Shown: piece by piece, positions 5,340 through 22,705 of the stretch
Layout of the letters: each line of letters begins with the position of its first letter
Numbering within the stretch: position 1 is the first letter of the stretch
Virus record (IMG/VR): IMGVR_UViG_3300035126_000208
Location: 1-31,874 of that record
Reading direction: 5' to 3' (one strand)
From: a virus
DNA length: 31,874 nt
The notes under the pieces: model-generated
Seen by the model: the letters and a program-made list of their open reading frames with translations, nothing else
What the model was told of the DNA's origin: nothing
The model's database searches: none
Program-made: the position numbers and the translations under genes

Positions 5340-5384
5340 GTAGAAAACCCCACCCCTTGTCATCGCAAGGGGTTTTCTACTTTT
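5340..5384 (+). terminator. Strong hairpin plus T-run directly before 5391 (attenuator-like)
   Basis: GTAGAAAACCCC (5340-5351) is perfectly complementary to GGGGTTTTCTAC (5369-5380), 12 of 12. An alternative inner stem CCCCTTG (5353-5359) / CAAGGGG (5366-5372) competes for the G tract. TTTT follows, then ATAGAT and the GTG start. Lying between a promoter and its first gene, it could act as an attenuator, as the end of read-through from upstream, or as a processing site. Confidence 0.7.
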
Positions 5385-5390
5385 ATAGAT

Positions 5391-5975
5391 GTGAACATTA
5401 CCAAAGCGCAACTGGATGCAATCAACAAAGGGTTGCTGGACAAGTTCGGGATACCCGACAGCCCGATGCCTAATTCATTACTTGCTGACCTTGTTTTGGG
5501 TGTGGCTCAAAGAATTATTGACGCCATCCGTGAGGACATGGAGCGAAAGGAATTGAAGTCCACAGGCAACCTGATTGCAGAAACGGGTGTGGGTGATTTT
5601 ATTGAAACACCAAGCGGTGTGACCGTGCCGATTATGATGTCAAAATACTATTTGTATGTTGACCAAGGCGTTAGGCCAAAATTACCACCACCAATTAAGC
5701 CGCTTGAAGATTGGATAAGAAACAAACGAACCGTGTATGCAAAGGTCAAGCCAAAGGAAGGACAGACAATGGAACAAGCAGTTAAGTCTTTTGCTATTGC
5801 CATTTCCAAAAAAATACACAGCAAAGGTACTATTGAAAGATTTGGTTACAAGGGTGCTAACTTTATTGACGATGTGCTGACTCCTGCCAATATTGATGCT
5901 ATCGCACAGCATTTGGGAGATGCCTTGGGTAAACCCATAACCGCATACGTTACAAGTGAGATTGCCACTACATAG
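5391..5975 (+). CDS. Probable head-tail connector or tail completion protein (HK97 gp10-like)
   Basis: Protein of 194 residues, GTG start (an overlapping ATG at 5389 runs straight into a stop). The region 'YYLYVDQGVRPKLPPPIKPL' followed by 'LEDWIRNKR' and, near the end, 'FIDDVLTPANIDAIAQHL' has the look of small tail-completion proteins of the HK97-gp10 type. The first gene of the tail block, behind a promoter and a leader hairpin. The assignment rests on general resemblance and position; a plain virion protein is the alternative. Confidence 0.65.
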   Translation: MNITKAQLDAINKGLLDKFGIPDSPMPNSLLADLVLGVAQRIIDAIREDMERKELKSTGNLIAETGVGDFIETPSGVTVPIMMSKYYLYVDQGVRPKLPPPIKPLEDWIRNKRTVYAKVKPKEGQTMEQAVKSFAIAISKKIHSKGTIERFGYKGANFIDDVLTPANIDAIAQHLGDALGKPITAYVTSEIATT

Positions 5976-5997
5976 GTAGGCGAAAACCTACTTTTTT
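5976..5997 (+). promoter_or_regulatory. Hairpin plus CCTACTTTTTT before 6003
   Basis: GTAGG (5976-5980), loop CGAAAA, CCTAC (5987-5991), then six T and AGGTA before the ATG. It fits a small intrinsic terminator, yet it sits five bases from a start codon. One of the recurrent CTACTTTTATA-like sites. Confidence 0.55.
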
Positions 5998-6002
5998 AGG
6001 TA

Positions 6003-7199
6003 ATGGCAATCACTATCAATACCGAGCCGAATGATGTCGCCCCGGTTTATTCGGATATCAGTTATGTGGTCACTTCGACCAACTACGCACAGGCAAATTT
6101 CAAGTTTATTGCGGTTATAAAAAACGCATCAGGCACGACCATTGCCAAATTGAAAGCACCGATATTCTACGGAACTACCGACAAGGGTGTGTTTAACATC
6201 AGCCGGATCCTGCAAAATTATGTGACCTACGATTTTACACAGGGACTGACCGCAATTAGCAAGTGCAATAACAGCTACCTTGCATATTCAGTTGAATTTG
6301 GCGAGGAATATGGCGGCACTGAATACCTGAACCTTGCATCCGACACGGGTAAATATGTGTGGAATGGCCTGTTTAATCTGTACGGTAGTGAAACATCAGC
6401 GACATACACATTCAATGTCACCCCAAGTACAGCAAAATTCCTTACCCGTGTCCGCACTCGCAGAGTAACCCGTGAGCAATACGATTACCTACACTTTTTG
6501 AATTTGGGTTCAAGTATTGAGCCATGCGTAAAAGCATATAATGCAGCAGGTACATTGACCGCCACAAGCTATTTGAAATTGCCGTGGACACCAAGTAGCA
6601 GTGACACATCACAATTCATGGTTAGATTTGGTGCAGGTGTTGTTCAGTTAAACGCACTCACAGCAGGGGAGTTGACATCGGGTACACCCGGCAGCGTTGT
6701 GCCTGTTGGCACGTCATATTACACCATACAATTCACCCAGACCATTGGTGGCAATTTCAGTGAGGTGTACCGCTTTGATGTGGTGGAAGAATGCAGCAAA
6801 TATGTGCCGCAATACCTTTACTTCCTGAACCCGTTGGGCGGCTTTGAAAGTGTGCGTTGCAGCATGGCATCACGTGATAAATACAGCGTGAGCAGAAAGC
6901 AGTTTAAACGCAATAACTACACGCTGACAGGCAACACATTTGCGTATGACAAAACAAAGCATGGGATGACTTCGTATGCAACCGAAAAGACAAAGCAAGT
7001 GGTGCTGAACACAAACTGGCTGAATGAAGTTGAGTTCGAATGGCTGCAAGATTTGATTGCTTCGCCTGTGGTTTTCTTGGGTGACATTCCTGTCAATATC
7101 ACAGACACCAATTATGAGGTGTTTGATTACATTGATGGCCCCAACAACCTACAAATTACCGTTGAATATACAGAACCTGAAAGGTTGCAGAACGCATGA
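6003..7199 (+). CDS. Tail or baseplate structural protein
   Basis: Protein of 398 residues, beta-rich, start MAITINTEPNDVAPVYSDIS. The stretch 'YLYFLNPLGGFESVRC' near residue 270 recalls tail proteins of Bacteroidota siphoviruses, which form a pair with a larger following protein, as here (ATGA overlap with 7196). No enzymatic motif. It most likely belongs to the distal tail or baseplate, since it lies between a tail-completion-like gene and the tape measure, but its exact place in the virion cannot be told. Confidence 0.65.
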   Translation: MAITINTEPNDVAPVYSDISYVVTSTNYAQANFKFIAVIKNASGTTIAKLKAPIFYGTTDKGVFNISRILQNYVTYDFTQGLTAISKCNNSYLAYSVEFGEEYGGTEYLNLASDTGKYVWNGLFNLYGSETSATYTFNVTPSTAKFLTRVRTRRVTREQYDYLHFLNLGSSIEPCVKAYNAAGTLTATSYLKLPWTPSSSDTSQFMVRFGAGVVQLNALTAGELTSGTPGSVVPVGTSYYTIQFTQTIGGNFSEVYRFDVVEECSKYVPQYLYFLNPLGGFESVRCSMASRDKYSVSRKQFKRNNYTLTGNTFAYDKTKHGMTSYATEKTKQVVLNTNWLNEVEFEWLQDLIASPVVFLGDIPVNITDTNYEVFDYIDGPNNLQITVEYTEPERLQNA

Positions 7200-9994
7200 A
7201 CAACGTAAGATTAGTATGCGGTGGGTACAGCGTTGACCTACCCACCGATTTTGGAATACAGATAAATAAAAGCATTGCCGACATTCGGGAGCCCGAAAGC
7301 AGATCATCGGATTGGACAAAAACATTCACCTTGCCGGGTACAAAGACCAACAACAAGCTATTCACCCACTTGTTTGATTTAAACCTTTCCATCCGCAACA
7401 CCACATCCACAAATTTCAGCCCTGATTTCAACCCAAACCTGAAAGCCGATGCGCTGCTTACCGTTGATGAAGTCACACAGATAGAAGGTTTTATCCGTTT
7501 GCTGTCAATTAAGGTGAATGATTTAAACCAAATTGAGTACGAATGCTCTATGCACGGGCAGTTGGCTGACCTTACCGCCAAGATTGCGGACAGCAAATTG
7601 AGTGATTTGGACTTTACGGAGTACAATCACATCATGAGTGATACCAACATTTTCAATTCGTGGGACACTTCGATAATCAAAAACAGCAGCGGATATGTGA
7701 ATTTTAGCGGTGGCGCACCTATTGGTGAGGGCTATGTGTACACTTGGTTAGACAATGGCAGATACCCTGATTATAGCACATTCCAAACCGATGACATGAG
7801 TGTGTGTCTGTATGCCAAAAATATTGTAGATAAGATTTTCAGCGGTGCTGGGTACACATATACAAGCGGTTCGTTTTTCAATACAACGCAATTTAGAAGA
7901 TTGGTAGTGCCTTGCCCTACTCAATTCCCGGTATTACCCGAAGCCGAAATACAATCACGGCAATTCCTTGTTCAAAAGTCATCAGGGCAAACCATAACCA
8001 TTCCGCAAAAGATTACATTCCAAACGGAGATAACTGACCCTTCAAACCAATTCAATACGACAACCAGTGAGTTCACGGTTGGCAAGACAGGGCAGTATGA
8101 CTTGTTTATTTACAATAAATCTACACTTGCGGTAACATTCAGCAGTTTTTATCCTGCTGGTACAAGCATATTTTTCAACTGCATATATTCTATTTATGTT
8201 AATGGTATTAGGATTGCGGTAAGAAATGGACAAAGCCAAACAGAAACAACAAAAACAGGAACATATAACATAACATTTGACGAAACAATTATGGTCGCAG
8301 AAGCGGCTAAATTAAATTCAGGTGATGTGGTTTCTATTTTGTTGGATAATATACAAGTAAGCGAACCGCCATTCCCTTCATCAAAATTAATAGCATCAGC
8401 AAATTCAGTAAGTAGTTATTCTTTTATACAAAATAGTGGGACTAAATTTTACAATCAAATTGTTGATGAAGTTGGATATGGCAACACATTAGATTTTAGC
8501 GGATTTTTCAGCGAAGAAACAAAACAAGCGGAATTTTTAAGATGGATTTTCAGGATGTTCAATCTCTATGTTGAGCCAACTGAAATAGACAAGAACCTTG
8601 TCATTCTGCCACGTGAGGAATTTTACACCAACACGGTAAAAGATTGGACAAAGAAAAGGGATTTGTCACAACCACTTGACATCATTCCAATGGGTGAACT
8701 TGAAGCAGGTAAATATATCTTCACCCATCAAGAGGGTGATGACGAAGGCAACAAAGAATACAAATCCGATTACAATCGAATATACGGTGACAGGCAGATA
8801 TTTATTGAAAATGATTTTGTCAAAGATGAAAAGAAAATTGAAACAGGATTTGGTGCTTCTATTTTAAACTCATTTCCCAAGGATGACAAAACACTAACCT
8901 ATATTGACAATGGCGACAACCTAAATTTCAACACTGGTAAAATCAGGATATTGCAATATGCCGCCTTGTCTTGCAATCCTTATTTAGTTTTTAATGGCAA
9001 AGTAAGAGTGCTTGGTGGTACATCTACCAACAAAACAAAATATCCATACACAGGGCATTTGGACAATCCAAAAACACCTACATCGGATATTAACTATGGT
9101 ATGCCGAGATTTATAGGTATTCCAGCAGGTACAGAAATGACCAACAATAATTTGTTCAATGCTTACTGGTCAAAGTATATGTCCGAAATTATAGACAAGG
9201 ACAGCAAGATAGTAAGAGGCCATTTCTACCTGACTCCTGCCGACATGGAAAAGCTGTCATTCCGTGACCTTTACTTTTTCGATGGCAATTACTTCCGGCT
9301 GAATAAGATTGAGGACTACGACCCGATTAACCCATCGGTCAACATCTGTGAGTTTCTGTTCCTTAAAGCAGGGCCGACATTCACGGCAACGACAGGAAGC
9401 GTGGGCGGTGGTGGAAGCCAAGGCAATGACAATGTAAAAGATGAAAAAGACCCCGAAGGCGGCAAGACAACGAATAAAGTAATAAGTCAGCGTGGCTTCA
9501 ATATAGGTCAATACAATGATGCCGGGGATGGCATAATGGTAGGGAATATCCTTTCAAACTTTGGAAACAGAAACGCTGCCTTTGCAACCAGCGGAGTGAC
9601 TTTCATTTGCGATGATAGCATTGTAATTGGACAAGCACCACCATCAGGTTACGCAGGATGCAACGAAGTGTGGATGCAAGGGCAGTTGATTACAAACAAC
9701 AATTTTGGCAGCAATCGTTTTGTATTTCCGACAGCCAACTACACGGCTGAAATGGACAAGGACATCATTATCTTTTCAGCAGCTGGTAATGGAACAATCA
9801 CATTGCCCCCGGTTGGCACATCAACATCCAAAGCGTTTTGGGTGGTAAAAGCAGAATCGGGTGGAACATTACGCATAGAAGCACAAAGTGGGGAATACAT
9901 AGATGGAAGTGACCATTACAACATCAACAACCAATGGGGTACAGCATATTTGGTATGCAACGGGTCAAGGTGGTACGCATTAACAAACAAATAA
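7196..9994 (+). CDS. Large tail protein with C-terminal binding-type domain
   Basis: Protein of 932 residues, the largest in the window. The start MNNVRLVCGGYSVDLPTDFG overlaps the previous stop by 4 bases. The N-terminal and central parts are beta-rich; a Gly-rich linker (GSVGGGGSQGNDN, about residue 740) separates a C-terminal part of roughly 190 residues with aromatic and Asn-rich short strands ending 'GSRWYALTNK', the style of receptor- or glycan-binding tips. The DNA at about 8100-9100 is visibly more AT-rich than its surroundings. Role inferred: tail tip or central fibre. No catalytic residues recognised. Confidence 0.7.
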   Translation: MNNVRLVCGGYSVDLPTDFGIQINKSIADIREPESRSSDWTKTFTLPGTKTNNKLFTHLFDLNLSIRNTTSTNFSPDFNPNLKADALLTVDEVTQIEGFIRLLSIKVNDLNQIEYECSMHGQLADLTAKIADSKLSDLDFTEYNHIMSDTNIFNSWDTSIIKNSSGYVNFSGGAPIGEGYVYTWLDNGRYPDYSTFQTDDMSVCLYAKNIVDKIFSGAGYTYTSGSFFNTTQFRRLVVPCPTQFPVLPEAEIQSRQFLVQKSSGQTITIPQKITFQTEITDPSNQFNTTTSEFTVGKTGQYDLFIYNKSTLAVTFSSFYPAGTSIFFNCIYSIYVNGIRIAVRNGQSQTETTKTGTYNITFDETIMVAEAAKLNSGDVVSILLDNIQVSEPPFPSSKLIASANSVSSYSFIQNSGTKFYNQIVDEVGYGNTLDFSGFFSEETKQAEFLRWIFRMFNLYVEPTEIDKNLVILPREEFYTNTVKDWTKKRDLSQPLDIIPMGELEAGKYIFTHQEGDDEGNKEYKSDYNRIYGDRQIFIENDFVKDEKKIETGFGASILNSFPKDDKTLTYIDNGDNLNFNTGKIRILQYAALSCNPYLVFNGKVRVLGGTSTNKTKYPYTGHLDNPKTPTSDINYGMPRFIGIPAGTEMTNNNLFNAYWSKYMSEIIDKDSKIVRGHFYLTPADMEKLSFRDLYFFDGNYFRLNKIEDYDPINPSVNICEFLFLKAGPTFTATTGSVGGGGSQGNDNVKDEKDPEGGKTTNKVISQRGFNIGQYNDAGDGIMVGNILSNFGNRNAAFATSGVTFICDDSIVIGQAPPSGYAGCNEVWMQGQLITNNNFGSNRFVFPTANYTAEMDKDIIIFSAAGNGTITLPPVGTSTSKAFWVVKAESGGTLRIEAQSGEYIDGSDHYNINNQWGTAYLVCNGSRWYALTNK

Positions 9995-12007: not shown

Positions 12008-12016
12008 CTACTTTTA
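12008..12016 (+). promoter_or_regulatory. CTACTTTTA motif before 12022
   Basis: CCTACTTTTATAATT directly precedes the ATG at 12022. A weak inverted repeat AGGTT (11979-11983) / AACCT (12005-12009) spans the tape measure stop. Same motif and same distance from the start codon as at 5377, 5988 and 22684. Confidence 0.5.
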
Positions 12017-12021: not shown

Positions 12022-13029
12022 ATGGAATTACCAGTGTACAAAATTGTGGTCAATGACGATGACGAAACAGGGGTTGAGTTTGTTTCTCTCGTTGACCGCC
12101 CAGCCATACAAAAAGACTTCATGCTGTTCAAAGACCAATTTGTTGATCCGACAGCAAACGAAACAGAAGATGAATTTATCAGCCGTTGCATCCCGGTAAT
12201 GATTGGCGAAGGCATGGAGCAAGACCAAGCCGCTGCCGTTTGTTATTCCAAATGGGAAAGCAGACAGAAATTTGAAAGCTATGATGACTATCCCGAAGCG
12301 GCCAAAGAAAATGCAAAGGTTGCACTCCGTTGGGCAGAAGAAAACGGATGGGGTGACTGCGGAACAGCGGTGGGTAAAATCAGGGCTAATCAGTTGGCAA
12401 ATGGTGAAGCCATCACCCGTGACACAATTGCAAGGATGGCAGGGTTTGAAAGGCACAGGCAAAACAGCGACAAGGAATTAGGTGACGGATGTGGCCGCCT
12501 GATGTGGTTGGCTTGGGGTGGTGATGAGGGCATTGAATGGGCAAGTCGCAAATTACAGCAGATAGATATGAGACAGGCATACTCGGTTCAGTCCGAAGAA
12601 AAGCGCATCGTGACAGGCCCGGCAATGTTAGCCGATTTACCCATTTACCGCTACGATGACATCAGGGGTGAGTACTACGTGACCTTTGATGCCGACACCA
12701 TTTGGAAGATAGCAAAGAAATTTGTCCGCAATGATGCCTATAAAGCAGTCAATACCGACCATGCCAACCCCGTGAAAGAGGGTGTCCACATGATTGAGTC
12801 ATACTTCATTGATCGCAAACGTGGTGTGATGCCACCTACCGGGTATGAAGATGCAAAGGATGGCTCGTGGTTCCTGACCTATTTAATAGACAATGAGGAA
12901 ATTTGGGCGAAAGTTAAGGATGGCGAGTGGAAAGGATTTTCAGTTGAGGGATTGTTTGACATGGAAGAACAGGATGAAGTCCTTGAAATGATGCGTGAAA
13001 TTACCGCCATGCTGAAAAATTTTGCATAG
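12022..13029 (+). CDS. Prohead serine protease, XkdF-like, with inserted domain
   Basis: Protein of 335 residues. The start at 12022 (MELPVYKIVV) is preferred over 11995, because the longer form would begin inside the tape measure and place the CTACTTTTA motif inside the gene. The N-terminus 'GVEFVSLVDRPAIQ' is typical of phage proteases that share a module with MuF proteins; residues 50-80 hold 'EDEFISRCIPVMIGEGMEQD', and 88-182 a separate helical module (YDDYPEAAKENAK ... WLAWGGDEGIEWA). The protease part (about 198-312) is XkdF-like, with His247 in NTDHANP and Ser307 in KGFSVEG as the likely catalytic pair. It should cleave scaffold and capsid during maturation; scaffold and capsid genes follow directly. 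Confidence 0.82.
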   Translation: MELPVYKIVVNDDDETGVEFVSLVDRPAIQKDFMLFKDQFVDPTANETEDEFISRCIPVMIGEGMEQDQAAAVCYSKWESRQKFESYDDYPEAAKENAKVALRWAEENGWGDCGTAVGKIRANQLANGEAITRDTIARMAGFERHRQNSDKELGDGCGRLMWLAWGGDEGIEWASRKLQQIDMRQAYSVQSEEKRIVTGPAMLADLPIYRYDDIRGEYYVTFDADTIWKIAKKFVRNDAYKAVNTDHANPVKEGVHMIESYFIDRKRGVMPPTGYEDAKDGSWFLTYLIDNEEIWAKVKDGEWKGFSVEGLFDMEEQDEVLEMMREITAMLKNFA

Positions 13030-13030
13030 G

Positions 13031-13052
13031 TTAAAATCAATCTACCTTTTAA
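13031..13052 (+). promoter_or_regulatory. Hairpin with CTACCTTTT motif before 13058
   Basis: TTAAAA (13031-13036) pairs with TTTTAA (13047-13052), loop TCAATCTACC; AGGT/ACCT offers an alternative. TTTG at 13021-13024 lies 18 bases before TACCTTTT, so a promoter reading is also possible. The ATG follows after GATAT. Confidence 0.45.
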
Positions 13053-14607: not shown

Positions 14608-14643
14608 GGGGGGTGGGGAAAAACCCTACCCCCCTTTAATTTA
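14608..14643 (+). terminator. Very GC-rich hairpin after the capsid gene
   Basis: Stem 14608-14618 (G6 T G4) with 14624-14634 (CCC T A C6), one G-T pair, loop AAAAA, followed by TTTAATTT. It lies 30 bases after the capsid stop and 12 bases before the next start. Probably a strong or partial terminator or a 3' stabiliser of the capsid mRNA. Confidence 0.8.
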
Positions 14644-15167: not shown

Positions 15168-15193
15168 TTTTTTCATAGTGTTTTCATGCAAAG

Positions 15194-15219
15194 AAGGTCG
15201 GGTTTTCCCGGCCTTTTTT
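15194..15219 (+). terminator. Rho-independent terminator
   Basis: AAGGTCGGG (15194-15202), loop TTTT, CCCGGCCTT (15207-15215), then a T run to 15219. Nine pairs with one G-T. A clean terminator after the 14655 gene. Confidence 0.88.
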
Positions 15220-15235
15220 GTTTAACATGAAACCG

Positions 15236-15254
15236 ACCTACTTATATAGGTAGG
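15236..15254 (+). promoter_or_regulatory. Palindromic CCTACTTATATAGG motif before 15255
   Basis: ACCTA (15236-15240) / TAGGT (15247-15251) with loop CTTATA, or CCTAC / GTAGG in another register. TTTG at 15217-15220 lies 18 bases before TACTTATA, so it may be a promoter; a new transcription start is needed here because a terminator ends only 17 bases upstream. Confidence 0.5.
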
Positions 15255-15632
15255 ATGCTGTACATAACCAAAGCAGGAACACCCGAATTGATAATCACAG
15301 GCAGAGAAAAGGTGACGGTTTCTCCCGTGTATTATCTGTTGGTGTTTGAGTCCGAAATGTCGCAGGAACAAAAGGCATTTATTGTAACCGATACCAGCAC
15401 AGCACCCAACAGATACCAACTTTTTTCATTTGTAGAGGGCAGCAGCGCATCAAAAACATTGGCCGTAGGTACGCATTACTGGGCTTTATACGCACAAACT
15501 TCCCCCACCAATACCAATCCATTACTTGCATCACAAGAAATTGACCGGGGATTGGCCTATGTTACCGCATCGCATACCGCATTTAACGACCACGAGGTCA
15601 ATACAACCATTAAGCAGCACCATATAGGATGA
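15255..15632 (+). CDS. Virion-associated protein of unknown role
   Basis: Protein of 125 residues, beta-rich, start MLYITKAGTPELIITGREKV. Repeated short strands (YYLLVFESEM, YQLFSFVEG, HYWALYAQT) suggest an immunoglobulin-like or beta-sandwich adaptor. It lies downstream of a terminator and before the portal, overlapping it by ATGA. No enzymatic motif. A neck or fibre-attachment protein is possible, but I do not recognise a named family. Confidence 0.6.
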   Translation: MLYITKAGTPELIITGREKVTVSPVYYLLVFESEMSQEQKAFIVTDTSTAPNRYQLFSFVEGSSASKTLAVGTHYWALYAQTSPTNTNPLLASQEIDRGLAYVTASHTAFNDHEVNTTIKQHHIG

Positions 15633-17380
15633 GTTTCGATTTACTACGCATAAATTTTACCGAGTCAAAGTTGCCTAAATTCAAGGAAAACAAGAATAAA
15701 GGCATCGTGACCTATGGGGAAAAGAACGATTTTCCTGATACGTTACTTGAATTTTACAACAGAAGCCCAAAACACGGGGCTATTGTAAGGCAAAAAGCCC
15801 GTTTTGTGGCAGGTGAAGAAACACTTGTGGATGGCAACCCCAGCGCAGTTAAGGTAATTGACTACGTTAACCCATACGAGGGGATTCAAGAGTTCAAAAA
15901 TAAGTTAGCTCTCGATTACGAATTGTTCAACGGCTTTGCATACGAGGTACACTACAACAAAGTAGGGCAGATTTCTGCACTTTACCACGTAGATTTCAGC
16001 AACGTGCGCACACTTGACCATGATGTGTATATGTATGCAGAAGATTGGAAAAAAGCCAAGCAAGAGGACATCAATCATTATGCACCTTTTAACCCGAAAA
16101 AGGCCCAACCAATGGAAGTGCAGTTGTACTACTTCCGAGAATATGCACCTTCGTTGGGTGTTTATCCGTTGCCCCCATATCAGCATTGTTTGCAGTATAT
16201 TGAAATCGATGTTGAGATAGCCAACTTCCACAATAACAACATCCGCAACGGGTTTGCCAACGGAACGCTGGTTCAGTTGTTCAAAGGACAACCTACCGAA
16301 GAAATTGCCTTTAACTTTGAGAGGAAGTTCAAGCAGAAAACAACCGGCACGGACAACGCAGGTGGTGTGCTTATTCAGTTCAATGAGATGAACGAAAAGT
16401 CGGCAGAGATTGCACACCTGCAACCTTCCGACATGGACAAGCAATTCCTGCAACTTAACGAAACGGTACAGGATGAAATCTTTATCGGCCACAACTTCCC
16501 GAAAATTCTGCTCGGTTATGCAACAGAAGGCGCACTTGGTCAGCGTAATGAAATGATTGAAGCGTATGAGTTGTTCCATAAGTCATACGTTAACAAACGT
16601 CAAGTAAAAGTTGACACTTGCCTACAACATACACTTGAAAGCGTTTATCCCGGCATCGAGTTAACCACCAAAGACAGCGATTTTCTCGGAGTTGATTACG
16701 TTGCATTGTATCAATTTGGCATTGTAAGCCGTGAGGAAGCACGTGAAGCACTCGGATTGCAAAACACAACCATTCAGGCGCAAAAGTTTGACGGTCACAC
16801 TTGCGAATTTCACAAATGGTCGGATAATGACTTGTCAGTTTTTGCCAAATTTGGGGCCGATGAAAGCGAATTTGAGGAAGTGAAACTCACCTTTGAACTG
16901 ACCACAAAAGAAAAGCGTGTGTTGGCTGTTGTAAATTCCGATGAAAAAGCCACATTGAAAGACATTTCTATCGCCACCAAAATAGGCGAAGAAGAAGTCA
17001 TCAAGATTTTGAAAACTTTGCAGGACAGCGGTAAGATAAATTGGACAAACAATGCAATCAAAATTACCGACATTGGCCGGGGTGAGATTGCAGACACCGA
17101 ACTGCCCAAGTTGGAACTGCGTTACAAGTACGATTTAGACCCTGATGCGTTGCCGTTGCAACCCGGTGGTGAAAGCCGTGAGTTTTGTGTGCAAATGCTT
17201 AAAATGGAAAAGCTCTATACTCGTGATGAAATAGACCAGATGAGTGCAATTTTAGGTTATAGCGTATGGCTTCGCAGGGGTGGATGGTACACCGTTCCAA
17301 ATACTGACCCACCGTTGCACATTCCGCATTGCAGACACGAATGGAAACAAAGAATAGTAAGGAGAAGAAACAATGGCTAA
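15629..17380 (+). CDS. Portal protein fused to winged-helix and MuF-like C-terminal regions
   Basis: Protein of 583 residues. Residues 1-400 look like a portal: GIVTYGEKNDFPDTLLEFYN, 'PKHGAIVRQKARFVAGEE', and the wing/crown part with 'KILLGYATEGALGQRNEM' near 290-307. Residues 424-485 form a winged-helix-like unit (KRVLAVVNSDEKATLKDISI, EEEVIKILKTLQDSGKI). Residues 490-580 resemble the C-terminal domain of Mu F-type minor head proteins: SREFCVQMLK, LYTRDEIDQMSAILGY, VWLRRGGWYT and the probable zinc-binding PHCRHEW. So one polypeptide may serve as portal and internal head protein. Unusually, it lies after the capsid gene instead of next to the terminase. It overlaps both neighbours. Confidence 0.8.
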   Translation: MSFDLLRINFTESKLPKFKENKNKGIVTYGEKNDFPDTLLEFYNRSPKHGAIVRQKARFVAGEETLVDGNPSAVKVIDYVNPYEGIQEFKNKLALDYELFNGFAYEVHYNKVGQISALYHVDFSNVRTLDHDVYMYAEDWKKAKQEDINHYAPFNPKKAQPMEVQLYYFREYAPSLGVYPLPPYQHCLQYIEIDVEIANFHNNNIRNGFANGTLVQLFKGQPTEEIAFNFERKFKQKTTGTDNAGGVLIQFNEMNEKSAEIAHLQPSDMDKQFLQLNETVQDEIFIGHNFPKILLGYATEGALGQRNEMIEAYELFHKSYVNKRQVKVDTCLQHTLESVYPGIELTTKDSDFLGVDYVALYQFGIVSREEAREALGLQNTTIQAQKFDGHTCEFHKWSDNDLSVFAKFGADESEFEEVKLTFELTTKEKRVLAVVNSDEKATLKDISIATKIGEEEVIKILKTLQDSGKINWTNNAIKITDIGRGEIADTELPKLELRYKYDLDPDALPLQPGGESREFCVQMLKMEKLYTRDEIDQMSAILGYSVWLRRGGWYTVPNTDPPLHIPHCRHEWKQRIVRRRNNG

Positions 17381-17924
17381 TTTCGCATATTTCGTAAGTG
17401 AGCAGGATGTAAAGAAGAACACCCCTATTGACGAAAACGTTGATAGCAAGTTGCTTCAAACTGCCATGCGCACAGCACAGGATGTTTATATCCGTGATAT
17501 TTTGGGAAGCACCCTATACGACAAGATTTGTGATGACATCAACGGGGCTGGGCTTGGTGGTAATTACCTGACATTGGTCAATAAATACGTTGCACCTTGC
17601 CTGTACCATTACGTGATTTTGGACTCAATGCTGCCATTGACCTACAAAATGATGAACAAGTCAGCGGCAAGTCGTGGCGCAGAAAATGCAAATGCGGTGG
17701 ATGTTGACCAACTTCGCATGATTGAGCAGCGTTACCAAAATAAAGCCGAATACTACGCTGAAAGATTGCGTTTGTATCTTGCCGAAAATGATACACTTTT
17801 CCCAGAATATCAAAACCCTGCGAGTGGTCTTGACGTGATCAACCCGCAGAACCAATATTTATTTGGTGGGTTTTATCTGGGTGAAGATGATGATTACAAA
17901 TTCCTGCGTGGATTTTTCTCATGA
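17373..17924 (+). CDS. Head completion or adaptor-like protein
   Basis: Protein of 183 residues, start MANFAYFVSEQDVKKNTPID, mostly helical, with an acidic, aromatic C-terminus (GGFYLGEDDDYKFLRGFF). The pattern 'LLQTAMRTAQDVYIRDILGS' recalls the helical head-tail adaptor (DUF6712-like) proteins that follow portals in Bacteroidota phages. It overlaps the portal by 8 bases. Role inferred from position directly after the portal. Confidence 0.62.
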   Translation: MANFAYFVSEQDVKKNTPIDENVDSKLLQTAMRTAQDVYIRDILGSTLYDKICDDINGAGLGGNYLTLVNKYVAPCLYHYVILDSMLPLTYKMMNKSAASRGAENANAVDVDQLRMIEQRYQNKAEYYAERLRLYLAENDTLFPEYQNPASGLDVINPQNQYLFGGFYLGEDDDYKFLRGFFS

Positions 17925-17969
17925 ATAAAGTAAGACAGAAAAACGAAAACAAACTGAAACTCTATCTCA

Positions 17970-18434
17970 ATGGTAACAATCAACCAACTACTGGAAGCTC
18001 TGGAAACTGCGGGAAACAACCACAAGCAGATAAAGGCAACCATCGTAAATATTGAACCCAATATCAATACAAGCGGTGAGCAGCTTTATCCACTTATGCG
18101 GATTTTTCCTGATGGAAGTCAGGTGACCGTTGACAAAGTGATTTATCGATTTGCGGTTGCCATTGCTGACAGGCACAGAGAAGATTTTACCGATGCAGTA
18201 GAACGCATCAGCGATATGCACACAGTGATGTTGGACATTTACTCAATGCTGCGTTATGTGTACCGAAACAACATAGCAGGAACATGGGTAATCAACGACA
18301 GCATTACACCCTTTTATGACGCCCAAACGGACATCGTTAGCGGAGTTGCAGCCGTTATAGAATATCATTGTCCAAATTTGAGAGATTACTGCGACACACC
18401 AAATAACAATTTAACATTCCCAACAATAGAATAA
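17970..18434 (+). CDS. Virion-associated protein, possible head-tail joining
   Basis: Protein of 154 residues, start MVTINQLLEALETAGNNHKQ. Mixed alpha/beta; 'EQLYPLMRIFPDGSQVTVDK' then 'YRFAVAIADRHREDFTDAVE' and an all-helical middle. Size and order (portal, adaptor, this) suggest a tail terminator or neck protein, without a clear family match. It starts 46 bases after the previous stop; a 44-codon frame starting by ATGA at 17921 overlaps its first third and is not preferred. Confidence 0.58.
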   Translation: MVTINQLLEALETAGNNHKQIKATIVNIEPNINTSGEQLYPLMRIFPDGSQVTVDKVIYRFAVAIADRHREDFTDAVERISDMHTVMLDIYSMLRYVYRNNIAGTWVINDSITPFYDAQTDIVSGVAAVIEYHCPNLRDYCDTPNNNLTFPTIE

Positions 18435-18705: not shown

Positions 18706-19520
18706 TAAGAATAGGTGTTCGGTCATTTGTAGCAGGTGGCGGCAATGATGCCGATGCACAGGCCTTTATTGATGCCGCTGCAATAACTGATGTAACACAG
18801 CAGTCGGCCATCAATACATTGGTACTGGACTTGAAAAATTATGGCATTTGGACAAAAATGAAAGCCATTTATCCTTTCGTTGGTGGTACAGCATCCACTC
18901 ACAAATGGAACTTGAAAGACCCCCGTGATTTGAATGCTGCGTTTAGGTTGGTGTTTAGTGGTGGAGGTACGCACAGCTCAACCGGATGGCTTCCAAACGG
19001 AACAAATGGTTTTGCAAATACTTTTTTTAATATATCAAATAATTTTATTAGTACAAGCAATGCTTCAATGGGTTGTTATTTAAGAACTGACACAAGCACT
19101 TCTTCTGTTGATATTGGAGCAGGTAATACAACTGAAGCCAAAAATGGAATTTTAATTTATTCTTCATTTAATGGAAGTACACTTTTTTCATGTGCATTTT
19201 CAAATACATTTATATCACCAGCTCCAACAAATAATGACTCGCGTGGTTTTTATTCAGTTGTAAGAGATGGAGGAGTTCAACGAATACATAAAAGAGGTGA
19301 TATTACTATCAATTTAAGTAAAACAGAAGCAAGTGCTGGTTTATCATCGTTAAATATTTATATTGGTGGCGGAAACCCAATAGGTGGTTCTGGTAGTTAT
19401 TTATATTCAGATAGAGAACAAGCATTTGCATTTATTGGTGATATAATAACACAAACTGAAATAGACAACCTTTACACCGCAGTACAAGCATATCAAACCA
19501 CTTTATCTCGTAACGTATGA
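18702..19520 (+). CDS. Probable receptor-binding tail fibre (lectin-like)
   Basis: Protein of 272 residues. N-terminal part (1-100) with 'LDLKNYGIWTKMKAIYPFVG' and 'HKWNLKDPRDLNAAFRLVFS', an attachment-type module; then about 150 residues rich in Ser, Asn, Thr and Gly with short strands, ending 'REQAFAFIGDIITQTEIDNL', consistent with a concanavalin/LamG-like jelly-roll. The DNA from about 19020 to 19460 is markedly more AT-rich than both ends of the gene, which suggests that the binding domain has been exchanged. It precedes a small gene and the lysis cassette, a usual place for fibre genes. Confidence 0.7.
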   Translation: MIRIGVRSFVAGGGNDADAQAFIDAAAITDVTQQSAINTLVLDLKNYGIWTKMKAIYPFVGGTASTHKWNLKDPRDLNAAFRLVFSGGGTHSSTGWLPNGTNGFANTFFNISNNFISTSNASMGCYLRTDTSTSSVDIGAGNTTEAKNGILIYSSFNGSTLFSCAFSNTFISPAPTNNDSRGFYSVVRDGGVQRIHKRGDITINLSKTEASAGLSSLNIYIGGGNPIGGSGSYLYSDREQAFAFIGDIITQTEIDNLYTAVQAYQTTLSRNV

Positions 19521-19771
19521 TTACCATAAAAGACATAACACCGGAACAATACAGCACCTACGTTGGTGTGCTGACAATCGAAGACAAAGACAGCTTAATT
19601 GGTCAATGGTATATGGCCGATAGCTATTTCAACCCTATCCAAGATGCTGACGACAAGTGGGTGATTTCGGTTGAGGAGATTTCCCAGTGCGTAAACCCTG
19701 ATTTTATGTGGGTGAAAGATTTGCCGCTTATCCCGTTTGTACCAAAACCATCACCGCCCTTTCCCGGATGA
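19517..19771 (+). CDS. Small protein downstream of fibre
   Basis: Protein of 84 residues, start MITIKDITPEQYSTYVGVLT, ending in a Pro-rich tail (VPKPSPPFPG). It overlaps the fibre gene and the next gene by ATGA on both sides. The compact alpha/beta pattern and location after a fibre suggest a fibre-assembly helper, but no family was recognised. Confidence 0.55.
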   Translation: MITIKDITPEQYSTYVGVLTIEDKDSLIGQWYMADSYFNPIQDADDKWVISVEEISQCVNPDFMWVKDLPLIPFVPKPSPPFPG

Positions 19772-19926
19772 AAAACGAAACTGAAACAATCGTAGGTAGT
19801 TGGCTGTTATGGTTGGCTGGGGCTGCTGCAAAGTTGCTTCCGTTAATTCAATTCCTATCTTTCACCGCTGCCCTTGTTTTATCCTGCATAGGCATCTATA
19901 AATTTTTCAAGTATGGCAAAAAGTAA
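19768..19926 (+). CDS. Holin-like small membrane protein
   Basis: Start at 19768 (MKNETETIVGSWLLWLAGAA), chosen because it couples by ATGA with the previous gene; an upstream ATG at 19708 would read through that gene. The product has 52 residues with two likely membrane helices (about 9-26 and 29-47) and a basic end (YKFFKYGKK). Size, topology and position just before spanin-like and endolysin-like genes suggest a holin, which would form membrane holes to release or activate the endolysin. No sequence family was identified. Confidence 0.6.
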   Translation: MKNETETIVGSWLLWLAGAAAKLLPLIQFLSFTAALVLSCIGIYKFFKYGKK

Positions 19927-19938
19927 GGAGATAGTAAA

Positions 19939-20217
19939 ATGGCAACCGAAAAGCAAACGGAAGTTGGGCAGACACACGAAGTCAGCCAACAAACACAATT
20001 CAGCAAAACCATACCGAGGACAAGGAAGATGAAACTTAAAGGATATTTCAAACCAACCCCAAAGCGTTTCAGGGTTTTGGGCGACAGCATTGCGGCTGCA
20101 TCTTTGTTCGTTGCCGGGTTAAACCTTGACCACCCCAAGTTGATGCTCATTTCAGGTGTATGCGGTGCTGTCGGAAAGTTCGTGACCAATTTCTTTGCGG
20201 AGGATGAAACGAAGTGA
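19939..20217 (+). CDS. Small membrane protein of lysis cassette
   Basis: Protein of 92 residues with a soluble, Gln/Thr-rich, basic N-terminus and two hydrophobic segments near the end (GDSIAAASLFVAGL and 'LMLISGVCGAVGKFVTNFF'), then an acidic tail. Preceded by AAGGAG at a good distance. Proteins with the pattern 'PTPKRFRVLGDSIAAASLF' occur in Bacteroidota phage lysis regions. It may be the holin in place of, or together with, 19768-19926. Confidence 0.6.
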   Translation: MATEKQTEVGQTHEVSQQTQFSKTIPRTRKMKLKGYFKPTPKRFRVLGDSIAAASLFVAGLNLDHPKLMLISGVCGAVGKFVTNFFAEDETK

Positions 20218-20710
20218 TTGGCTTTTTGTGCTTTGTGGTGTACTTGCTATTGTGCTTGTCTTTGGGCATTGCCCGACACAACAAAAACCACAGGCAGACA
20301 CAGGACTGGTAGATAGTTTAAATGCCGAAATTGACAGCATCAAAAATGAGTATGCTGCGCTGCTGATCAACCGCCCTGAAAAAGTTAAACGCATCCGTGA
20401 AATTAGGACAAAATATGTCCATGACACCCTGACCATTACCGAGCTTCAACAGGACACGATAAAACTTGCCGCCCTGATTGATGAAAATCAACTTTGCTGG
20501 GAAATAATATCCGATGATAGCGTGGTAATTTACAGCCAAGAGCAAGTCATAAAATTACAGGATAGTGCGATAACGCATTTACAAGCCATTACAGCCACTC
20601 AAAATGAGCAGTTAATACAATGTGCCACAGACAACAATAAAATGCGTAGGAAACGAAATGCGTGGCGAAATATCGCAATCTTATCATCATTATTATTCAT
20701 AGCCAAATGA
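20204..20710 (+). CDS. Spanin-like membrane protein
   Basis: Protein of 168 residues starting MKRSDWLFVLCGVLAIVLVF (chosen over 20195, three codons earlier). An N-terminal signal-anchor helix is followed by a long periplasmic coiled coil (residues 30-145) and a second hydrophobic stretch at the very end. A Cys follows the first helix (VFGHC), but the preceding His spoils a lipobox. An inner-membrane spanin (Rz-like) fits the topology, and it precedes the endolysin with an ATGA overlap. No separate outer-membrane lipoprotein was found. Confidence 0.55.
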   Translation: MKRSDWLFVLCGVLAIVLVFGHCPTQQKPQADTGLVDSLNAEIDSIKNEYAALLINRPEKVKRIREIRTKYVHDTLTITELQQDTIKLAALIDENQLCWEIISDDSVVIYSQEQVIKLQDSAITHLQAITATQNEQLIQCATDNNKMRRKRNAWRNIAILSSLLFIAK

Positions 20711-21336
20711 AAGCACTGCAAGAACTACTGAACAAAAATGGGGCAAACCTGAAACCTGATGGCGTTATCGGCCCGAAAACAACCGAAGCACTGGCCAACT
20801 ACATAGCCAATGAGCTGAAAAAACGCAAATGGTTACCCCAATATCATGGTATTGTATGGCTTCGCACGGATGATAAGCTGACAAATAAGTTCGAAGATTA
20901 CTGCGTTGTGTACAAATACGGGCAGATTGTCTACGTTTGCCATGCTTCCACCACCGCTGGTGACTTTTATGTCTACAATCCCCTCACCGTTGGTGGGATA
21001 AATGGCACAGCTGTGGCTACTGAACAGCAGGTTGTTGGTTCACACCGCTTTGTAACGGGTGCAAAATGGTCAAATTTGTGGCTTGGTGCGCCTTATTTTC
21101 AGCAGATTTTGCCTATAACCATTTACCGGGATGGTACAAAAGACAGACAACTTGACCAAAAAGTAACGCAATTCGGGTTATTTGGGATAAACTTCCACCG
21201 TGCCGGGCTGGGTGACTGGGTGAATAAGTGGTCAGCAGGGTGTCAGGTTGTACCTGATAAGCATTGGTTCGAGATTGTGAAGCGATTTAATCAGGGGCAG
21301 ACCATTGATTTTACCCTATTTTGCACATTCGGATAA
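20707..21336 (+). CDS. Endolysin candidate: peptidoglycan-binding plus YkuD-like catalytic domain
   Basis: Protein of 209 residues; start 20707 couples by ATGA with the spanin-like gene (an upstream ATG at 20662 is inside it). Residues 1-35 (LQELLNKNGANLKPDGVIGP, then KTTEALANYI) are a PG_binding_1-type repeat. The C-terminal domain shows INFHRAG with His164 and WSAGCQV with Cys179, the His...Ser-x-Gly-Cys arrangement of the L,D-transpeptidase (YkuD) fold. In a lysis cassette this would most likely be a cysteine-dependent peptidoglycan peptidase acting on cell-wall cross-links. Last plus-strand gene before the convergent terminator. Confidence 0.72.
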   Translation: MKALQELLNKNGANLKPDGVIGPKTTEALANYIANELKKRKWLPQYHGIVWLRTDDKLTNKFEDYCVVYKYGQIVYVCHASTTAGDFYVYNPLTVGGINGTAVATEQQVVGSHRFVTGAKWSNLWLGAPYFQQILPITIYRDGTKDRQLDQKVTQFGLFGINFHRAGLGDWVNKWSAGCQVVPDKHWFEIVKRFNQGQTIDFTLFCTFG

Positions 21337-21352
21337 GCAAAATTTGCGAAAA

Positions 21353-21385
21353 TTGCTCATTGCATTGAGCAAAATTACTCAATGC
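21353..21385. terminator. Convergent terminator with two exclusive hairpins
   Basis: TTGCTCA (21353-21359) / TGAGCAA (21366-21372) and GCATTGAG (21362-21369) / CTCAATGC (21378-21385) are both perfect but share TGAG and cannot form together. They lie in the 61-base gap between the converging plus and minus gene blocks. Each strand could use a different one. Confidence 0.6.
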
Positions 21386-21397
21386 TTTGCGTAAAAA

Positions 21398-21661
21398 CTA
21401 TCTGTGGACATCCACCAAATTGATAAGATGCTCTATTGAAAACTTGACAATGTAAGTCAACTCACCGCACACGATAATGGTCAGCGGCTTTTTTGGTGTG
21501 CTTCGGTTGTCAGGCATCATGCAATCAATTTTGTACAAACAGACAGGAAATGTCGGCTCTTGATACAAATCAACTTCGGAAGGTGCAATACCCATTTCAT
21601 AAAGCGCATCTTCCATTTCATCCCCTGCAATGACTTCAAGGCAAAGCGGTGTGTGAAACAT
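21398..21661 (-). CDS. Hypothetical protein, end of early operon
   Basis: Protein of 87 residues, start MFHTPLCLEVIAGDEMEDAL, acidic N-terminal half, beta-like C-terminal half (LTIIVCGELTYIVKFSIEHL). It overlaps the end of the phosphoesterase gene by one base, so it is translated from the same message. No domain recognised. It is the last gene on the minus strand before the convergent terminator. Confidence 0.6.
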   Translation of the reverse strand: MFHTPLCLEVIAGDEMEDALYEMGIAPSEVDLYQEPTFPVCLYKIDCMMPDNRSTPKKPLTIIVCGELTYIVKFSIEHLINLVDVHR

Positions 21662-22668
21662 CAGTAAACCCTCCCTTCAATTATGCGGTAGTTTTCTACG
21701 TGGAAGTTTCTATTTGGAAGCACGGTCACGATAGCACCCCCATGATTTTGTTTGATGTAGCCATAGGGGTTGTATTCGGGTGTAAGTGTACAATGACACC
21801 CGGTGGAGAAACAAACAATCTCATCGCCTTTCAAGTTGTTTTCGTGGTGGCTTGATGTCTGGTGGTGATGGCCGATAAGCAGCGAAGATTTTGCCCTCAT
21901 AAATGCACCCCTTGCCGGGTTAACCGGAGCCATGATTGACTTTTGAAATTCGTGGCCATGCAGAATGTCAAGTTTCCCGGCTTTTATTCTTTCCCTGAAC
22001 ACTACTTTGATGTCGTACTTTTTCAAGTGCAGTTGTTCTTCCAAAGTTATGCCATCCAAATCTTCAATGGCACGGGCATTGCTTAACAAATAATGGCGCA
22101 TCCTTTCCTCGTGATTGCCAAATTTATACCAAATGGGCAGGGTTGGAAACTCCTCACGCAGCAACTGGAAGAAACTGCGTGTCATTATCAATTCCTCACG
22201 GATGCTCGGGCGTTTGGTTTCCTGTAAAAAGCGGCTCACCATGTACATATCAATAATGTCACCATTCAGCACAATCCCTGTGATGCCTTTTTCTTTTCCG
22301 TATTCCAACGATGCTTGGATTGCAAGTGGGTCATGTTCAGGGAAGTGAATATCCGACATGACCAAATACTTTCCTGATGGCAGCACCACATCCTTTCGGA
22401 CTGGTAGCTTTGTGTAAAGGCCAAACTTTTTCAGGCCTTCTTCGATTGTTGATTTTCCGGGCATATTTTCAGTGTGTTTTTTACCATACTTTTGGTCGCC
22501 AAGTGAGTTAGTGCATTTACGTATTGTGTTACGCACAGCGTTAACGCTTGGCCATACACCGGGATTTTGTTCGTAAATGAGTTTGGAGAGTGTTTGTTTT
22601 GGGAGCATCAGCTGCCCATCCATCATGTGTTGCTGCATGATAGATTTGACGATTTCAATTTTAGTCAT
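21661..22668 (-). CDS. Calcineurin-like metallophosphoesterase with N-terminal helical domain
   Basis: Protein of 335 residues. All five metallophosphoesterase motifs are present: Asp106 and His108 in SDIHFPEHD, Gly136-Asp137 in NGDIID, GNHE at 184-187, His237/His239 in HGHE, and GHHH at 266-269. These would bind two metal ions and cut phosphoesters; the substrate (DNA, RNA ends or nucleotides) is unknown. The first 70 residues form a separate, partly basic helical region (NAVRNTIRKC) that may bind DNA. It is preceded by a hairpin and CTACTTTTATAG 4 bases before TAG-ATG. In this operon a role in DNA metabolism is likely. Confidence 0.85.
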   Translation of the reverse strand: MTKIEIVKSIMQQHMMDGQLMLPKQTLSKLIYEQNPGVWPSVNAVRNTIRKCTNSLGDQKYGKKHTENMPGKSTIEEGLKKFGLYTKLPVRKDVVLPSGKYLVMSDIHFPEHDPLAIQASLEYGKEKGITGIVLNGDIIDMYMVSRFLQETKRPSIREELIMTRSFFQLLREEFPTLPIWYKFGNHEERMRHYLLSNARAIEDLDGITLEEQLHLKKYDIKVVFRERIKAGKLDILHGHEFQKSIMAPVNPARGAFMRAKSSLLIGHHHQTSSHHENNLKGDEIVCFSTGCHCTLTPEYNPYGYIKQNHGGAIVTVLPNRNFHVENYRIIEGRVY

Positions 22669-22673
22669 CTATC

Positions 22674-22705
22674 TATAAAAGTAGTTAGCCCCTGCGATTG
22701 CTAAC
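22674..22705 (-). promoter_or_regulatory. Hairpin plus CTACTTTTATAG before 22668
   Basis: On the minus strand GTTAGC (22705-22700), a ten-base loop and GCTAAC (22689-22684), followed by TACTTTTATAGATAG and the ATG at 22668. It is the same signal as at 5377-5388, on the other strand and in the early operon. The stem overlaps the stop codon of the small gene upstream. Confidence 0.5.

What the first reader, a model, noticed from the sequence alone, without database searches (positions are those of the whole stretch)
5340..22705. Recurrent hairpin plus CTACTTTTATA signal directly before start codons
A core like [CT]CTACTTTTATA sits 3-8 bases before the start codon of 5391, 6003, 12022, 15255 (variant ACTTATA), 13058 (variant ACCTTTT) and, on the minus strand, 22668. 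At most of these sites an inverted repeat ends in or just before the CTAC, with T-rich sequence after it. The sites lie in virion genes and one early gene, on both strands. Three (5378, 13043, 15239) have TTG or TTTG exactly 18 bases upstream. Readings: a phage-specific promoter variant giving leaderless mRNAs, tiny terminators closing the upstream gene, or an RNA processing/translation signal. I know of no described element of this form.
Basis: partly seen in the sequence, partly recalled or inferred. Interest (0 to 1): 0.7.

Follow-up and report, generated by a model that had tools for sequence, protein, structure and literature searches.

The report
Phage-own late promoters at start codons
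A family of uncultured viruses of Bacteroidota bacteria appears to switch on its virion genes with a short DNA signal placed right before the start codon and read by a polymerase-steering (sigma) protein that the virus itself encodes, and signal and protein seem to change together between lineages.

Summary
The motif is real. Six genes (5391, 6003, 12022, 13058, 15255, and 22668 on the minus strand) carry an 8-base box (TACTTTTA or a variant) 5-8 bases before the start codon. Relatives keep the position but change the letters in concert: TACTTTTA, TACTATTC or TACATTTA. In 130 of 130 relative loci with two or more boxed genes, all boxes are of one type. The hairpin is not the conserved part: a stem with 3 or more G-C pairs touches the box in 20 of 206 boxed upstream sequences; terminators lie just upstream at three of the six genes, regularly at 15255 (42 of 49) and 5391 (11 of 13), and in 7 of 18 at 22668. 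Best reading: late promoters giving leaderless or 1-4-nt-leader mRNAs. The likely reader is a phage-encoded, ECF-like sigma factor (29859-30392, +), found in 14 of 18 records compared. Its fold resembles sigma factors, and its region-2 half tracks the box type in the one informative outlier. Several early genes use host-type promoters (TAnnTTTG) with like geometry. Cultured phage P12024L has a sigma-70 gene and its own box (CGTTAAT) directly before ATG. No RNA ends were seen; the mechanism is inferred. Works like phiEco32 sigma gp36.

The parts
5378..5385 (+). late box TACTTTTA, 5 nt before GTG of gene 5391
   Evidence: box in 28 of 49 relative loci at this gene; most of the others have a tRNA-like 3' end there
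5989..5996 (+). late box TACTTTTT, 6 nt before ATG of gene 6003
   Evidence: 53 of 54 relative loci
12009..12016 (+). late box TACTTTTA, 5 nt before ATG of gene 12022 (protease)
   Evidence: 114 of 117 relative loci
13043..13050 (+). late box TACCTTTT, 7 nt before ATG of gene 13058
   Evidence: 112 of 135 relative loci; absent in the clade C ones
15239..15246 (+). late box TACTTATA, 8 nt before ATG of gene 15255 (next gene is the portal)
   Evidence: 116 of 118 relative loci
22676..22683 (-). late box TACTTTTA, 7 nt before ATG of metallophosphoesterase gene 22668-21661
   Evidence: 30 of 31 relative loci, also before a different phosphoesterase-like gene without BLAST match
29859..30392 (+). 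phage sigma-factor-like gene (TTG start inferred from relatives; longest ORF starts at 29796); candidate reader of the late boxes
29076..29105 (+). host-type promoter TTG-N19-TATATTTG, ATG 3 nt after; about 750 bases upstream of the sigma-like gene on the same strand, with an HNH ORF (and a second ORF) between
15191..15219 (+). intrinsic terminator upstream of the 15255 box
   Evidence: terminator-like hairpin at this place in 42 of 49 distinct relatives, 0.4 expected; covariation in 18 selected sequences
5340..5380 (+). terminator-like hairpin whose T-tract is the 5378 box
   Evidence: 11 of 13 relatives have one here
5975..5991 (+). small hairpin GTAGG/CCTAC ending in the 5989 box; kept in a minority of relatives
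28949..28956 (-). host-type early promoter box TACATTTG, 4 nt before ATG 28944, TTG 19 upstream
26500..26507 (-). host-type early promoter box TATATTTG, 4 nt before ATG 26495, no TTG at 16-21
25171..25178 (-). host-type early promoter box TATATTTG, 4 nt before ATG 25166, TTG 19 upstream
24077..24084 (-). host-type early promoter box TATATTTG, 4 nt before ATG 24072, TTG 19 upstream

Best explanation
The boxes are late promoters of a Bacteroidota phage. Host RNA polymerase with the host primary sigma factor first reads TTTG / TAnnTTTG promoters placed so that transcription starts at the ATG of several early genes; one such promoter lies upstream of a phage-encoded, ECF-like sigma factor (29859-30392). 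That sigma factor then directs the host core enzyme to the short -7-like box (TACTTTTA here) before 5391, 6003, 12022, 13058, 15255 and 22668; transcription starts about 5 nt after the box, so these mRNAs are leaderless or have leaders of 1-4 nt. Terminators just upstream of the box at 5391, 15255 and (in part of the relatives) 22668 stop upstream transcripts, so those units depend on their own box. Shown by sequence: position, strand, conservation, concerted letter change, terminators, presence and predicted fold of the sigma-like protein. Inferred: that the box is transcribed from, the start point, that this protein reads it, and the early/late timing.
For: Position and strand fixed at six genes. 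Box at 453 of 504 gene-by-locus cases over 159 loci (overlapping loci included); one type per locus in 130 of 130 loci with two or more boxes, against a shuffled mean of 67.7 and maximum of 81. Enrichment before starts for the record's own type: for example WIN A 6/22 p 9e-9, G001 B 5/12 p 2e-8, G003 C 5/7 p 1e-10. The phosphoesterase gene is replaced in relatives by one without BLAST match while the box stays. Terminator-like hairpins within 62 nt upstream of the box: 11 of 13 (5391), 42 of 49 (15255), 7 of 18 (22668), with 0.2-0.4 expected. Sigma-like gene in 14 of 18 records, the 4 without being short or cut. Fold: Foldseek PDB ranks 1-21 are all sigma factors or sigma-position chains of transcription initiation complexes for the window protein, and ranks 1-10 for the clade C protein; viral library best E 4e-7 (uncharacterised), first named sigma factor E 4.2e-4. 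TIGR02937 sigma70-ECF E 1.8e-6 and 5.2e-6 for the two clade B proteins over nearly the whole model, above the proven phiEco32 gp36 (27.7 and 26.2 against 23.3 bits). Covariation: outlier record G021 has A-type boxes, and the region-2 half of its sigma is 44-49% like A/A2 but 30-35% like B, C and C2, while its C-terminal half shows no preference. Early boxes have the host consensus and end 4 nt before ATG; the host start point is known (PMC6847099, passages).
Against: No RNA data. Foldseek PDB E-values are weak (best 0.07 and 0.055), TM-scores are about 0.2-0.3, and helical bundles match easily. The window's own sigma-like protein hits no sigma model in Pfam, PHROGs or NCBIfam; TIGR02937 hits of relatives are below the curated cut-off; other weak hits compete (HTH_Cbp1 in 6 of 14 members, best 0.0033; a transposase PHROG in 4, best 0.00057, against a sigma PHROG in 6, best 0.013; HTH_60 0.0044). 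The region-2 covariation rests on one record and tests of p 0.016-0.052. 51 of 504 cases have no box, mainly 13058 in clade C, 5391 in A2 relatives, and the distant L084 and L158. No terminator upstream of the box at 6003, 12022 or 13058 (0 of 28, 53, 45). A host-type promoter with TTG was found within 1.5 kb upstream of the sigma-like gene in only 5 of 14 records. Clade A and C boxes differ from the host consensus mainly in lacking G-5, so a host-sigma promoter with a phage helper is not excluded. Profile comparison with phiEco32 gp36 and P12024L gp35 gave nothing (probability 3).
Confidence: 0.74

Rival explanations
1. Late promoters read by the host primary sigma factor helped or altered by another phage protein (for example the DnaA-domain-IV protein 25184-25639 or a small HTH-like protein), the box being a weakened host -7 element.
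For: Clade A and C boxes keep T-12, A-11, T-8, T-7, T-6 of the host element in most sites and lack G-5 (host positions from PMC6847099); the DnaA-like protein is also found in 15 of 18 records.
Against: Clade B box (TACTATTC) also loses T-8; C at -10 is fixed in nearly all late boxes but not in the host-type ones; a phage sigma-like gene is present and its region-2 half tracks box type.
Confidence: 0.15
2. Tiny intrinsic terminators that close the upstream gene, the box being their T-tract.
For: Terminator-like hairpins upstream of the box at 5391 (11 of 13), 15255 (42 of 49) and 22668 (7 of 18); 5340-5380 is a good terminator.
Against: None at 6003 (0 of 28), 12022 (0 of 53) and 13058 (0 of 45); at 15255 the terminator has its own T-run about 20 nt before the box; the box letters, not stems, are kept; the clade B box has a broken T-run.
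Confidence: 0.03
3. RNA processing or translation-initiation signal in a longer mRNA (a phage nuclease or the ribosome reads CUACUUUUAUA just before AUG).
For: Near-fixed distance to the start codon; same strand as the gene.
Against: Terminators just upstream at three of six genes would leave little RNA to process; letters change in concert between relatives; early genes place known promoter boxes at nearly the same distance.
Confidence: 0.06
4. Operators (stoperator-like sites) bound by a phage repressor rather than promoters.
For: Short asymmetric sites near gene starts with lineage-specific sequence would fit such a system (recalled from mycobacteriophage L5, no call).
Against: 5-8 nt distance to the start codon, on the coding strand in all six cases including the minus-strand gene; no repressor identified.
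Confidence: 0.02

Closest known systems
phiEco32-like phages: sigma gp36 (phiEco32, single element tAATGTAtA) and sigma gp47 (7-11, GTAAtg-16-aCTA)
   Same: Phage-encoded sigma factor, short phage-specific promoter element before late genes, start 6-8 bp after the element in phiEco32, host promoters for early genes, and different promoter letters at similar genome places in relatives with diverged sigma (PMC8948821 and PMC4331800, passages).
   Different: Different host phylum and no detectable sequence link to gp36; boxes sit so close to the start codon that leaderless mRNAs are expected; three box types within one family of tailed phages; terminators abut some boxes; no RNA evidence here.
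Host primary sigma (sigma-ABfr) promoters of Bacteroidota, TTTG / TAnnTTTG
   Same: Overall -7 position and, in clades A and C, most of the element; several early genes of this phage use it.
   Different: Late boxes lack G-5, nearly all have C at -10, and mostly no TTG at 17-19 upstream (5 of 98 outside 13058 and 15255).
T4 late promoters (TATAAATA, gp55; recalled, no call)
   Same: One short element at the -10 place without -35, read by a phage sigma-like protein.
   Different: Other letters; no sliding-clamp coupling known here; homology to gp55 not tested.
Nonlabens phage P12024L (cultured)
   Same: Portal relative; sigma-70 region-2 gene gp35 (PF04542 25.2 bits, cut-off 24) about 850 bases before the large terminase gene; CGTTAAT 4-5 nt before ATG at six genes, best-ranked upstream 7-mer, 6 of 13, p 1.4e-9.
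   Different: Other box letters and a recurring ACAAA further upstream; gp35 not alignable to our family; most of the six genes are annotated hypothetical.

Membership tests
phage sigma-factor late-promoter system (phiEco32 / 7-11 type) | phage gene with sigma-70/ECF homology | tested here: met
   TIGR02937 E 1.8e-6 for a clade B member (below curated cut-off, as is proven gp36); blind fold matches to sigma factors for clade A and C members. The window member itself has no sigma profile hit
phage sigma-factor late-promoter system (phiEco32 / 7-11 type) | shared phage-specific element upstream of virion genes | tested here: met
phage sigma-factor late-promoter system (phiEco32 / 7-11 type) | transcription starts 6-9 bp from the element | not testable with these tools
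   needs RNA ends
phage sigma-factor late-promoter system (phiEco32 / 7-11 type) | sigma binds host core and directs transcription from the element | not testable with these tools
   needs in vitro transcription
phage sigma-factor late-promoter system (phiEco32 / 7-11 type) | sequence relation of the sigma to gp36 | tested here: inconclusive
   hhalign probability 3 with a single sequence on one side
host sigma-ABfr promoter (late boxes) | -7 element TAnnTTTG | tested here: not met
   the six window boxes do not end in G, nor do the B and C boxes as listed; clade B also lacks T-8
host sigma-ABfr promoter (early boxes) | TAnnTTTG with TTTG about 19 upstream | tested here: met
   28949, 25171, 24077 (-) and 29098 (+); 26500 (-) lacks the TTG
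intrinsic terminator (the box itself) | GC-rich stem directly before the T-run | tested here: not met
   no G-C-bearing stem (3 or more G-C pairs) touching the box at 12022, 13058, 15255 (0 of 147); present at 5391 (8 of 13), 6003 (9 of 28), 22668 (3 of 18)
intrinsic terminator (15191-15219) | conserved covarying stem plus T-run | tested here: met
   present in 42 of 49 relatives; covariation in 18 selected stem-bearing sequences
leaderless mRNA | 5' end at the start codon | not testable with these tools
   inferred from the host start position relative to the -7 box (PMC6847099)

The most novel reading that the evidence does not exclude
Phages of Bacteroidota commonly carry their own ECF-like sigma factor that makes leaderless late mRNAs from boxes abutting the start codon, in a host group where leaderless mRNAs are a small minority; within one family the sigma's -10-reading domain and all boxes have switched together at least twice, so that a natural series of matched sigma/promoter pairs exists.
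Probability: 0.55. Interest if true: 0.75.

Novelty: new variant of a known kind. Interest (0 to 1): 0.62.

Why it matters
It offers a control scheme for the late genes of a common but hardly studied group of phages, predicts the function of an unannotated conserved gene, and predicts leaderless late (and some early) mRNAs in hosts where only 5.5% of the mapped mRNAs are leaderless (F. psychrophilum, PMC9723704 passage). The three box types with their sigma variants would be matched promoter/sigma pairs that can be tested in Bacteroidota and might serve as tools there.

Tried and rejected
Terminator-only and hairpin readings of the box: rejected. Sigma-70 and terminator consensus scans: counts at chance level over the window (promoters 32 against 30.2 and 41 against 37.8; terminators 19 against 16.8 and 13 against 15.9). 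The DnaA-domain protein as reader: in 15 of 18 records, but that of G021 finds only a C2 partner at 31%; left as rival. Profile comparison with phiEco32 gp36 and P12024L gp35: no signal. Profile search of PDB sequences: TAL-repeat and other unrelated chains, no sigma factor. tblastn of the sigma-like protein (one clade A, one clade C member) against isolated phages: no match. VIA-align Z up to 8.0 for sigma factors: below the level that is safe for helical proteins, not counted as proof. Rfam: nothing at gathering level in the window; three weak matches in 4880-5400, all far below gathering score. Host: three fragmentary genome matches, MAGs labelled bacterium, Flaviramulus sp. and Bacteroidetes bacterium; host genus unknown. 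Literature: searches listed no paper whose title or abstract start describes such boxes or this sigma family in Bacteroidota phages; only open-licence papers are held, listings are capped, and of the papers that name P12024 (19) I read none.

Limits of the counts: box patterns were written after seeing the first alignments and were widened for (CACTTTTA, TACTACTA or TATTATT added); loci overlap and are related, so p-values and the 130 of 130 overstate independence (100 distinct site sets). The 18 sequences were picked by me from those printed and leave out sequences without the same stem (L102 and the C2 ones) or with another stem (L165, L174, L175), so its 98.3% is inflated; one search is the unselected count. 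An unselected alignment of 35 misplaced several stems and was not counted. Hairpins differ slightly between (21 of 173, 50 bases; 20 of 206, 90 bases). In G021 the box words rank only 4th to 6th among upstream 7-mers, and record G026 shows only 2 of 14 (p 0.005). Rows dropped: tblastn hits that did not reach the first 4-6 residues, or with under 50-90 flanking bases, were left out; L001-L005 and L133-L152 were left out. The window itself is not among the relatives counted.


Full report
What the window is. The window is a whole IMG/VR virus record of a tailed phage: large terminase, portal, protease, tape measure. Its portal resembles those of Nonlabens phages P12024L/S (26.6% identity) and many near relatives occur in viral contigs (lists capped at 80). 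The only cellular matches in one scan are three fragments labelled bacterium, Flaviramulus and Bacteroidetes. Together with promoters of the host consensus TAnnTTTG this points to a Bacteroidota host.

The observation. Six genes carry the box: TACTTTTA at 5378, TACTTTTT at 5989, TACTTTTA at 12009, TACCTTTT at 13043, TACTTATA at 15239 and TACTTTTA at 22683-22676 on the minus strand, ending 5, 6, 5, 7, 8 and 7 nt before the start codon. The word alone is only mildly over-represented (16 matches against 9.1 expected); its placement is far from chance (6 of 22, p 9e-9; CTACTTT ranks first among upstream 7-mers seen 3 or more times).

Conservation. In relatives the box stays at the same genes. Three letter types occur: A (TACTTTTA), B (TACTATTC/T, also TATTATTC) and C (TACATTTA). 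Each record is enriched before starts for one type: A in the 8 A/A2 records (weakly, 2 of 14, in G026), B in 3 of 3, C in 6 of 6, and A in the outlier X_G021 (3 of 11); the other two types give 0 or 1 match per record. Over 159 loci a box is found at 453 of 504 gene cases; all 130 loci with two or more boxes are of one type, against a mean of 67.7 and a maximum of 81 when types are shuffled among loci within each gene. Related loci are not independent, but a set of dispersed sites that changes letters together is the mark of a trans-acting reader. The phosphoesterase gene is swapped in some relatives for another phosphoesterase-like gene (my reading of its motifs) without BLAST match, while the box before it stays.

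The hairpins. They are a second thing. Stems of 5 pairs with 3 or more G-C pairs and loops of 3-12 nt that touch the box are found in 8 of 13 (5391), 9 of 28 (6003), 0 of 53 (12022), 0 of 45 (13058), 0 of 49 (15255) and 3 of 18 (MPE, 22668) distinct boxed sequences, together 20 of 206; stems of any composition are near chance, 120 of 206 against about 92 expected. Terminator-like hairpins (6 or more pairs, 4 or more G-C, then T-rich) within 62 nt upstream of the box are found in 11 of 13 at 5391, 42 of 49 at 15255 and 7 of 18 at MPE, with 0.2-0.4 expected, and in none of 126 at the other three genes. At 15255 the terminator (15191-15219) has its own T-run and its stem covaries: 31 both-side changes against 9.7 in shuffles, in 18 stem-bearing sequences that I picked. 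A terminator followed at once by a box and a start codon makes sense if the box is the promoter of the next unit; this argument covers three of the six genes.

Geometry. In Flavobacterium johnsoniae the -7 element lies at T-12 to G-5 (PMC6847099, passages). Four minus-strand early genes (28944, 26495, 25166, 24072) have TAnnTTTG ending exactly 4 nt before ATG, so that +1 would be the A of ATG; three of them have TTG 19 upstream. Set in the same register, the late boxes give leaders of 1-4 nt. Late boxes mostly lack TTG at 17-19 upstream (5 of 98 outside 13058 and 15255, where it is constant).

No sigma factor or polymerase was named by Pfam or PHROGs in the window proteins scanned. Comparing records showed a conserved unannotated protein, 29859-30392 (+), in 14 of 18 records; the others are short or cut. 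Its model is helical in two parts (mean pLDDT 78.7, pTM 0.44). Foldseek against PDB lists sigma factors, or the sigma-position chains of initiation complexes, at ranks 1-21 for the clade A protein and 1-10 for the clade C protein, with weak E-values (best 0.07 and 0.055); the viral library gives E 4e-7 to an uncharacterised phage protein and named phage sigma factors from E 4.2e-4. TIGR02937 (sigma-70 family) matches the two clade B members with E 1.8e-6 and 5.2e-6 over nearly the whole model, above the proven phiEco32 gp36 in the same test (27.7 and 26.2 against 23.3 bits), though below the curated cut-off; 5 of 14 members match at E up to 1. The window member itself has no sigma profile hit, and some members have equally weak or better hits to other HTH families.

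Covariation. The record G021 (locus L186) has mosaic virion genes: those from 15255 to 17970 are closest to clade C or C2 (for example portal 67.5% against 59-61% to A/A2), others to A, A2 or B. Yet its boxes are of type A, also before the C-like 15255 gene. Its sigma-like protein is 48-49% identical to clade A and 44-46% to A2 in the N-terminal half (region 2, the -10 reader) against 34% to B, 34-35% to C and 30% to C2; the C-terminal half shows no preference (A 37-38, B 38, C 33, C2 43%). Discordant columns are 19:8 (against C), 22:8 (C2) and 20:8 (B) in favour of A (p 0.052, 0.016, 0.036), and 12:8, 9:13 and 8:8 in the C-terminal half. This is one record and a modest effect, but it falls in the predicted domain.

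Cascade. A host-type promoter (TTG-N19-TATATTTG, 29076-29105) lies about 750 bases upstream of the sigma-like gene on the same strand, so the host enzyme could make the phage sigma, which would then serve the late boxes. Such a promoter was found within 1.5 kb in 5 of 14 records, so this step is weaker.

A cultured parallel. Nonlabens phage P12024L encodes gp35 with Sigma-70 region 2 (25.2 bits, cut-off 24) and has CGTTAAT 4-5 nt before ATG of genes 3031, 5412, 22090, 24771, 26011 and 27612 (a variant at 179), most of them hypothetical, 3031 just before the portal; it is its best-ranked upstream 7-mer (6 of 13, p 1.4e-9), with ACAAA further upstream. So start-codon-abutting boxes in a phage with a sigma gene are not confined to this family, and this one can be tested.

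Known or new. phiEco32 gp36 and 7-11 gp47 are proven phage sigma factors with short promoter elements (tAATGTAtA; GTAAtg-16-aCTA) at similar genome places and different letters (PMC8948821, passages; PMC4331800, passages). The present system works like these. What is new is the host phylum, the unannotated protein family, the leaderless placement, terminators abutting some boxes, and the within-family series of box types. The searches listed nothing that describes it.

What is not shown. No RNA end, no binding, no timing. The step from box to promoter is strongly supported by comparison; the step from promoter to this sigma-like protein is likely but rests on fold, presence and one informative outlier.

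Noticed in passing
4985-5211 (+): Two tRNA-like remnants (T-arm-like sequences GGTTCGAGTCC and GAGTTCGAACCCCC) that ARAGORN does not call; Rfam finds no tRNA at gathering level.
   Followed up: partly
L047, L057, L063, L044, L153 upstream of the 5391 homologue: In these relatives the gene starts directly after a tRNA-like 3' end (for example ...ACCCGGTGCA ATG) with no box; tRNA 3'-end processing might make that mRNA nearly leaderless. ARAGORN calls one tRNA in 9 loci scanned, in L124.
   Followed up: partly
5240-5385 (+): Compared with L034 an inserted stretch: host-type promoter (5283-5290, TTG 19 upstream), then a terminator-like hairpin 5340-5380; looks like a small RNA gene.
   Followed up: no
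21661-22668 (-) and relatives: Two phosphoesterase-like proteins without BLAST match to each other occupy the same place behind the same box in different relatives.
   Followed up: partly
14608-14634 (+): Strong hairpin with a weak T-tract between genes 13630 and 14655, without a box; may set the ratio of the two.
   Followed up: no
25184-25639 (-): Protein with a DnaA C-terminal HTH domain (PF08299) in 15 of 18 records; probable replication initiator or regulator.
   Followed up: no
13022-13050 and 15218-15246 (+): TTG at 17-19 nt upstream of the box is kept in 33 of 33 and 42 of 42 sequences at these two sites only; a -33-like element at two of six promoters is unexplained.
   Followed up: partly
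L295 2750-3031: In P12024L a TATATTTG promoter of a minus-strand gene lies back to back with the late box region of the divergent gene 3031.
   Followed up: no
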